Of a stretch of 64,000 nucleotides of DNA, positions 63,060 through 63,259 are shown piece by piece. Positions within the stretch are counted from its first letter, which is position 1. Every line of letters starts with the position of its first letter. This stretch comes from an uncultured cyanobacterium. Lineage in GTDB: Bacteria; Cyanobacteriota; Cyanobacteriia; PCC-6307; Cyanobiaceae. The position numbers and the translations under genes were made by a program. The notes under the pieces are model-generated. The model was not told the origin of the DNA, did no database searches, and worked only from the letters and a program-made list of their open reading frames with translations. Where the stretch lies: contig CAIZQU010000081.1 in assembly GCA_903935205.1 (NCBI GenBank), forward strand, positions 1 through 64,000. Reading direction: 5' to 3'.

Positions 63060-63259
63060 GAGCCCTGGAGGCCTGAAACCCTGGAGCTCTGAAGCCTTGA
63101 AACCCTGAAACCCTGGAGCACTGAAACCCTGTAACCCCGGAGCCCAAGAGCCGCAGAGCCCTGAAACCCTGAAACCCTGGAGCCCAAGAGCCGCAGAGCC
63201 CTGAAACCCTGGAGCCCTGGAGCCGTAGAACCACGGAACCGCGGAACCGCGGAACCGAG
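63060..63259. repeat. Phased octamer tandem-repeat array (RARCCCTG-like, about 25 units) with a 40-bp higher-order duplication
   Basis: Consecutive octamers: GAGCCCTG GAGGCCTG AAACCCTG GAGCTCTG AAGCCTTG AAACCCTG AAACCCTG GAGCACTG AAACCCTG TAACCCCG GAGCCCAA GAGCCGCA GAGCCCTG AAACCCTG AAACCCTG GAGCCCAA GAGCCGCA GAGCCCTG AAACCCTG GAGCCCTG GAGCCGTA GAACCACG GAACCGCG GAACCGCG GAACCGAG. Confidence 0.95.

What the first reader, a model, noticed from the sequence alone, without database searches (positions are those of the whole stretch)
63060..63259. 25-unit phased octamer array with alternating AAACCCTG / GAGCCCTG units
Directly visible: 200 bp between the gamma-glutamylcyclotransferase stop and the next gene parse without slippage into 8-mers. 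Two main variants (GAGCCCTG, AAACCCTG) interleave, and the array drifts to GAACCGCG at its right end. A 40-bp composite (GAGCCCAA GAGCCGCA GAGCCCTG AAACCCTG AAACCCTG) at 63140-63179 is repeated at 63180-63219, changed only in the last octamer, so it probably grew by slippage and segmental duplication. GAACCGAG also occurs just outside the left edge (63037-63044). Cyanobacterial STRRs are classically heptamers in filamentous species; an octamer array in a picocyanobacterium-like genome is unusual. Function is unknown (protein-binding array, nucleoid organisation, or neutral slippage locus).
Basis: partly seen in the sequence, partly recalled or inferred. Interest (0 to 1): 0.8.

Follow-up and report, generated by a model that had tools for sequence, protein, structure and literature searches.

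The report
Lineage-private intergenic octamer tandem repeat
A 200-base run of 25 near-identical 8-base units really does sit between two genes of this freshwater Cyanobium-type cyanobacterium, but it is most likely a replication-slippage product in a genome unusually full of such repeats and of a private mini-transposon, not a new kind of element.

Summary
In detail: 25 in-phase octamers occupy 63060-63259, lag-8 identity 0.73 against 0.28 in shuffles, with a 40-bp block duplicated at 63140/63180 differing by two bases. "Alternating" is loose; the two main units are interleaved irregularly and account for 11 of 25.

The array lies in the spacer between a gamma-glutamylcyclotransferase gene and a convergent Fer4_5/AAA gene. 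This gene pair is conserved in about 25 relatives, and none has the array. The (RARCCCTG)3 unit is found nowhere else in this genome and in none of 387 other genomes of the phylum. Permuted control octamers form arrays in viral contigs about as often (0-6 against 7 contigs), so the unit is not special.

Two things surround it. First, this genome is unusually rich in short tandem arrays whose units are not multiples of three: 14 in 618 kb outside the window's contig, against 0 in 1.08 Mb of six congeners. Second, the right end of the array abuts (4 bp) a decayed copy of an undescribed MITE of about 270 bp with 19-21-bp inverted ends, 45 copies here and none detected in 41 congeners.

Best explanation: a neutral slippage minisatellite in a permissive convergent spacer. 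Interest low to moderate; the private MITE family and genome-wide array excess are more notable.

The parts
63060..63259 (+). 25-unit octamer tandem array (consensus RARCCCTG), right end drifting to GAACCGCG
63140..63219 (+). 40-bp five-octamer block and its duplicate (two mismatches, both in the last octamer)
   Evidence: TRF period 40, 2.7 copies, 92% match
63037..63044 (+). isolated GAACCGAG directly after the upstream stop codon, identical to the last array unit but out of phase
63159..63185 (-). the only canonical G-quadruplex motif in the array (GGGCTCCAGGGTTTCAGGGTTTCAGGG)
62644..63036 (+). upstream gene: gamma-glutamyl cyclotransferase (PF06094)
63686..64000 (-). C-terminal part of the convergent downstream gene (AAA lid plus Fer4_5 4Fe-4S protein), running out of the window to about C81:65983
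63264..63593 (+). decayed copy of a ~270-bp MITE whose left end abuts the array (4 bp away), interrupted by about 60 extra bases (about 63450-63530)

Best explanation
A lineage-private intergenic minisatellite. A short purine-rich/pyrimidine-rich stretch behind the GGCT stop codon was tandemly duplicated, then lengthened by replication slippage and by copying of multi-unit blocks (the 40-bp unit). Point mutations accumulated and persisted at the edges while the centre was homogenised. It survives because the spacer between two convergent genes tolerates insertions. This genome as a whole generates or tolerates such arrays, and MITE insertions, far more than its congeners. Shown: position, phase, block duplication, conserved flanking synteny without the array, genome-wide excess of unrelated arrays, adjacent MITE. 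Inferred: slippage as the mechanism, neutrality, and the order of array and MITE at this site.
For: Unit pattern with private variants at both ends (units 2, 4, 5, 8, 10, 21, 22, 25) and a homogeneous core, plus a 40-bp duplicate. About 25 relatives keep GGCT next to the convergent gene and none has an octamer array there. The relatives whose downstream match reaches the end of the gene have gaps of 4-483 bp against 656 bp here. Non-3n arrays of 5-16 bp units: 18 in 690 kb of this genome, 0 in 800 kb of two complete congeners and 0 in 281 kb of four others; without the window's contig 14 in 618 kb against 0 in 1.08 Mb, binomial p = 7e-7. Their units are unrelated (AATCTCTG, ATGTCCAG, CAGACAGCCAT, CCAGGCCCCAAGCT and others). 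The plus strand has stops in all three frames inside the array. No Rfam match, no promoter or terminator in the array, RNA folding only weakly below shuffles (z -1.2 and -2.0). The octamer is not clearly preferred over permuted octamers as a class.
Against: No strain-level length variation could be shown, so slippage activity is inferred from one allele. Many units are diverged, so the array may be old and no longer expanding, which persistence under weak selection would also give. The sampled stretches of this genome are contig starts, which may be enriched for repeats (most arrays found are internal). One congener (G310) does have octamer arrays elsewhere, so the contrast with congeners is not absolute.
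Confidence: 0.77

Rival explanations
1. G-quadruplex-forming regulatory repeat, like the GGGNATC heptamers of Xanthomonas and GGGGA(C/T)T of Nostoc (PMC4692102): the minus strand carries GGG tracts every 8 bases that fold and affect transcription or mRNA 3' ends.
For: The minus strand reads GGGTTTCA/GGGCTCCA; one canonical four-tract motif exists. Published G-rich heptamers lie preferentially within 50 bp of stop codons on the sense strand or upstream of ORFs on the antisense strand (PMC4692102), and this array starts 24 bp after a stop codon (though its G-rich strand is the antisense one).
Against: Only one four-tract motif in 25 units, and the window holds 24 such motifs in all. The unit is not repeated elsewhere in the genome, and most other arrays of this genome have no G3 tracts. 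The published repeats occur at many loci with one shared unit.
Confidence: 0.08
2. Protein-binding array or nucleoid-organising site using the octamer as a repeated operator.
For: Positions 2, 4 and 5 of the unit are nearly invariant (25, 24 and 23 of 25) and the phasing is strict.
Against: A single locus in the genome and none in 387 other genomes of the phylum for (RARCCCTG)3, absent from all syntenic relatives. Invariant columns follow from recent duplication as well.
Confidence: 0.05
3. The array belongs to the adjacent MITE, as a minisatellite carried inside or at the end of the element (as in BrickBuilt of Porphyromonas gingivalis, PMC4596501).
For: Array and MITE left end are 4 bp apart; several other MITE copies have arrays within about 60 bp.
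Against: No other MITE copy carries this octamer, arrays next to other copies have unrelated units and lie on either side, and most of the 43 copies examined have none. Both classes are expected in the same permissive spacers.
Confidence: 0.06
4. Coding: a repeat protein read from the minus strand, where all three frames are open through the array.
For: Minus-strand ORFs of 149-303 aa span it; one metagenomic protein shares the GFQGFR-type repeat.
Against: Openness follows from the unit's composition; no Pfam match; the single hit (P0001) looks like the same kind of antisense translation of another octamer array; the ORFs run antisense to GGCT or through the MITE.
Confidence: 0.02
5. Assembly artefact.
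For: Draft genome of 169 contigs; another octamer array lies exactly at a contig end (C10).
Against: Units are diverged, the duplicated block spans only about 80 bp in total, shorter than ordinary short reads, and both flanks are unique and syntenic with relatives.
Confidence: 0.02

Closest known systems
Bacterial intergenic minisatellites / VNTR loci (e.g. those used for MLVA typing of Xanthomonas, PMC4045669)
   Same: Short imperfect tandem units, slippage-type structure, locus-specific units, lineage-restricted presence
   Different: No length polymorphism shown here; no strains to compare
Cyanobacterial STRR / G-rich heptamers (Nostoc GGGGA(C/T)T; Xanthomonas GGGNATC; PMC4692102)
   Same: Short tandem units in non-coding DNA, one strand G-rich, near a stop codon
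   Different: Octamer, not heptamer; one locus rather than a genome-wide shared unit; only one four-G-tract motif; not a filamentous species
BrickBuilt MITE-borne minisatellite of Porphyromonas gingivalis (PMC4596501)
   Same: Minisatellite next to a MITE in intergenic DNA
   Different: There the 23-bp minisatellite is contained within the element; here the array is outside the element and found at one copy only

Membership tests
Intergenic minisatellite / VNTR | Head-to-tail short units well above chance | tested here: met
Intergenic minisatellite / VNTR | Lies outside coding sequence | tested here: met
   Starts 24 bp after the GGCT stop and ends about 426 bp before the end of the convergent gene; plus-strand stops in all frames
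Intergenic minisatellite / VNTR | Unit number varies between strains | not testable with these tools
   No DNA of a second strain could be fetched; a GGCT protein cluster with two members whose representative is 98% identical exists
Cyanobacterial STRR / GGGNATC-type G-rich heptamers | Seven-base unit of the GGGNATC / GGGGA(C/T)T type | tested here: not met
   Unit is eight bases, GGGTTTCA/GGGCTCCA on the minus strand
Cyanobacterial STRR / GGGNATC-type G-rich heptamers | Same unit at many loci in the genome | tested here: not met
   RARYCNNN x4 occurs at only three places in the genome, and the other two have different units from this one
Cyanobacterial STRR / GGGNATC-type G-rich heptamers | Folds into a G-quadruplex in vitro | not tested
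   One canonical motif by sequence only
MITE (the adjacent element, not the array) | Short, non-coding, terminal inverted repeats, multi-copy | tested here: met
   ~270 bp, inverted ends CTAGGAGCCTGTTGCGCGTAG, stops in all frames in most copies, 45 matches
MITE (the adjacent element, not the array) | Target-site duplication | tested here: inconclusive
   No consistent flanking duplication seen in 28 near-full-length copies
MITE (the adjacent element, not the array) | Parent transposon with matching ends | tested here: inconclusive
   No transposase-bearing copy identified; a variant end (AGGAGCCTGTCGCGCATAG) occurs on C24, C39 and C156

The most novel reading that the evidence does not exclude
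This lineage has a heritable change in replication or repair, or a transposition-linked process, that seeds tandem arrays of arbitrary 8-16 bp units in spacers, often beside MITE ends; the octamer array is one product of it. That would make it a natural minisatellite-mutator genome in a free-living picocyanobacterium.
Probability: 0.12. Interest if true: 0.6.

Novelty: new member of a known kind. Interest (0 to 1): 0.28.

Why it matters
The array alone is one more bacterial minisatellite. It matters a little more as a pointer to a genome that carries about 20-25 non-3n tandem arrays per megabase in the sampled DNA and a private MITE family of about 45 copies, while its congeners show almost none. 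That contrast makes the cause of array birth in bacteria (repair background, drift, or transposition) testable within one genus, and gives ready strain-typing loci.

Tried and rejected
Special octamer: (RARCCCTG)3 hits 7 IMG/VR contigs of unrelated base composition, but permuted octamers hit 0, 4, 0, 0, 2 and 6, so there is no convincing enrichment. Shared octamer family in the clade: RARCC x4 in 8 of 400 family genomes against 3 for the reversed control, units all different from this one. Phage or plasmid origin: no match at blastn sensitivity. Known RNA family: none. Loss of mismatch repair: mutS1 is present above cut-off in this genome, and 8-bp loops are in any case thought to be beyond its usual range (own knowledge). 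Array carried by the MITE: other copies lack it. GAACCGAG at both ends as a target-site duplication: not pursued, it is out of phase and matches the unit consensus. Structured RNA: weak folding. Literature searches for octamer or STRR work in picocyanobacteria found nothing direct.

Full report
What was checked. The window is contig C81:1-64000 of a 3.82-Mb, 169-contig genome. Its relatives are Cyanobium/Synechococcus-type picocyanobacteria; the congener G090 is 3,342,364 bp long, the length of the contig from which a Cyanobium gracile protein is listed. At 63060-63259 the sequence divides into 25 octamers without slippage. The consensus is RARCCCTG, with A at position 2 in all 25 units and C at positions 4 and 5 in 24 and 23. 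Lag-8 identity is 0.73; 2,000 dinucleotide shuffles give 0.28 on average and 0.40 at most. The 40-bp block at 63140 is copied at 63180 with two substitutions in the last octamer.

Surroundings. The array begins 24 bp after the stop codon of a gamma-glutamyl cyclotransferase gene (PF06094) and lies in the spacer before a convergent gene with an AAA lid and Fer4_5 domains. The gene pair is conserved in about 25 congeners and other relatives, and no octamer array occurs in any of their spacers. The measured gap is 656 bp here and 4-483 bp in the relatives whose downstream match reaches the end of the gene; other gaps in that table are inflated because the match stops short. There is no promoter-like or terminator-like site inside the array, no Rfam match and no strong RNA fold. 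The plus strand has stop codons in every frame within the array, while the minus strand is open in all frames because of the unit's composition. The minus-strand ORFs have no Pfam match; their only database relative is a metagenomic ORF that looks like an antisense translation of another octamer array.

Is the octamer special? Within this genome RARYCNNN x4 occurs at three places: this array, (AATCTCTG)15 at the start of contig C10, and a short array near the end of C115. RARCC-type octamer arrays are found in 8 of 400 family genomes, against 3 for the reversed control pattern. (RARCCCTG)3 is found in this genome alone among 388 genomes of the phylum. It does occur in seven IMG/VR contigs with G+C from 46 to 65%, which at first suggested a recurrent motif, but six composition-matched permutations gave 0, 4, 0, 0, 2 and 6 contigs. 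The octamer is within the range of ordinary octamers.

What is unusual is the genome. In 690 kb of this genome TRF finds 18 arrays of 5-16 bp units, at least 3.5 copies, with unit lengths that are not multiples of three (the present array counts as two of them). In 800 kb of two complete congeners it finds none, and in 281 kb of four more congeners none. Leaving out the window's own contig the figures are 14 in 618 kb against 0 in 1.08 Mb, p = 7e-7. The units are unrelated to each other. Caveats: the sample consists of contig starts, and a pattern search shows that at least one congener, G310, has octamer arrays elsewhere. mutS1 is present, so loss of MutS is not the cause.

A neighbour that was not in the finding. 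From 63264 to 63593, 4 bp from the end of the array, lies a decayed copy of a dispersed element. Aligned copies show a non-coding element of about 270 bp with inverted ends CTAGGAGCCTGTTGCGCGTAG, that is, a MITE. There are 45 matches in this genome and 85 end sequences with up to three mismatches against none for the reversed control. A member copy finds nothing in 41 congeners, and the exact end pair occurs in 1 of 400 family genomes, this one. Tandem arrays of various units cover 7.0% of bases within 100 bp of MITE copies and 0.5-1.7% at 400-800 bp. In one case (C150:25354-25622) the MITE sits inside a 12-bp array. This decline with distance is also what shared confinement to spacers would give, so a causal link is not claimed.

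Mechanism. The unit pattern, with private variants at the edges, a homogeneous centre and a duplicated five-unit block, is that of a minisatellite grown by slippage and block duplication. Private presence in an otherwise conserved spacer, unrelated arrays elsewhere and lack of any recognisable signal argue for neutrality. Slippage and neutrality are inferences; no second allele was available. The nearest published analogues are intergenic VNTR loci (PMC4045669), the G-rich heptamers of Nostoc and Xanthomonas (PMC4692102), whose unit length and genome-wide sharing are not met here, and the BrickBuilt MITE-minisatellite (PMC4596501), whose array is internal to the element, unlike this one.

Verdict. 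Real, well described, and a new member of a known kind. Interest about 0.28 for the array. The private MITE family and the genome-wide excess of arrays are worth more attention than the octamer itself.

Noticed in passing
window 63264-63593; 45 matches across G000, best e.g. C15:9048-9316, C122:1647-1915, C116:15444-15712 (L287-L289): Undescribed MITE family, ~270 bp, inverted ends CTAGGAGCCTGTTGCGCGTAG, non-coding, 45 matches in this genome; a member copy finds none in 41 congeners, and the exact end pair occurs in no other of 400 family genomes.
   Followed up: yes
L035 (G000:C10:1-137): Second octamer array, (AATCTCTG) x15 passing into GAACCTGT units, exactly at a contig end, so its true length is unknown.
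   Followed up: partly
L156 (G000:C115), 13590-13956: Short TGAATCTC octamer array between two direct copies (from 13662 and 13841, 179 bp apart) of a block of roughly 115 bp at the contig end; may be a larger tandem repeat collapsed in assembly.
   Followed up: partly
L036 6122-6822 (C81:66121-66821), just right of the window: Five different tandem arrays within 700 bp (units of 13, 6, 12, 13 and 6 bp), one of them CTGAAACCAACA x5.5, which shares CTGAAACC with the octamer array 3 kb away.
   Followed up: no
window 63449-63511: About 60 bp of extra sequence inside the decayed MITE copy, 80-93% similar in part to places in contigs of four other congeners (G353 twice, G369, G298, G366); possibly a second small repeat.
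   Followed up: partly
G000:C24:2219, C39:1879, C156:1569: Variant inverted end AGGAGCCTGTCGCGCATAG followed by different internal sequence on C24 and C39; may mark a related second element or the parent transposon.
   Followed up: partly
L291 (G000:C150:25354-25622): MITE copy sitting inside a 12-bp tandem array (GCCAATCTCTCA).
   Followed up: no
window 42685-42868 (-): 6S RNA gene (RF00013, 90.6 bits), ordinary.
   Followed up: no
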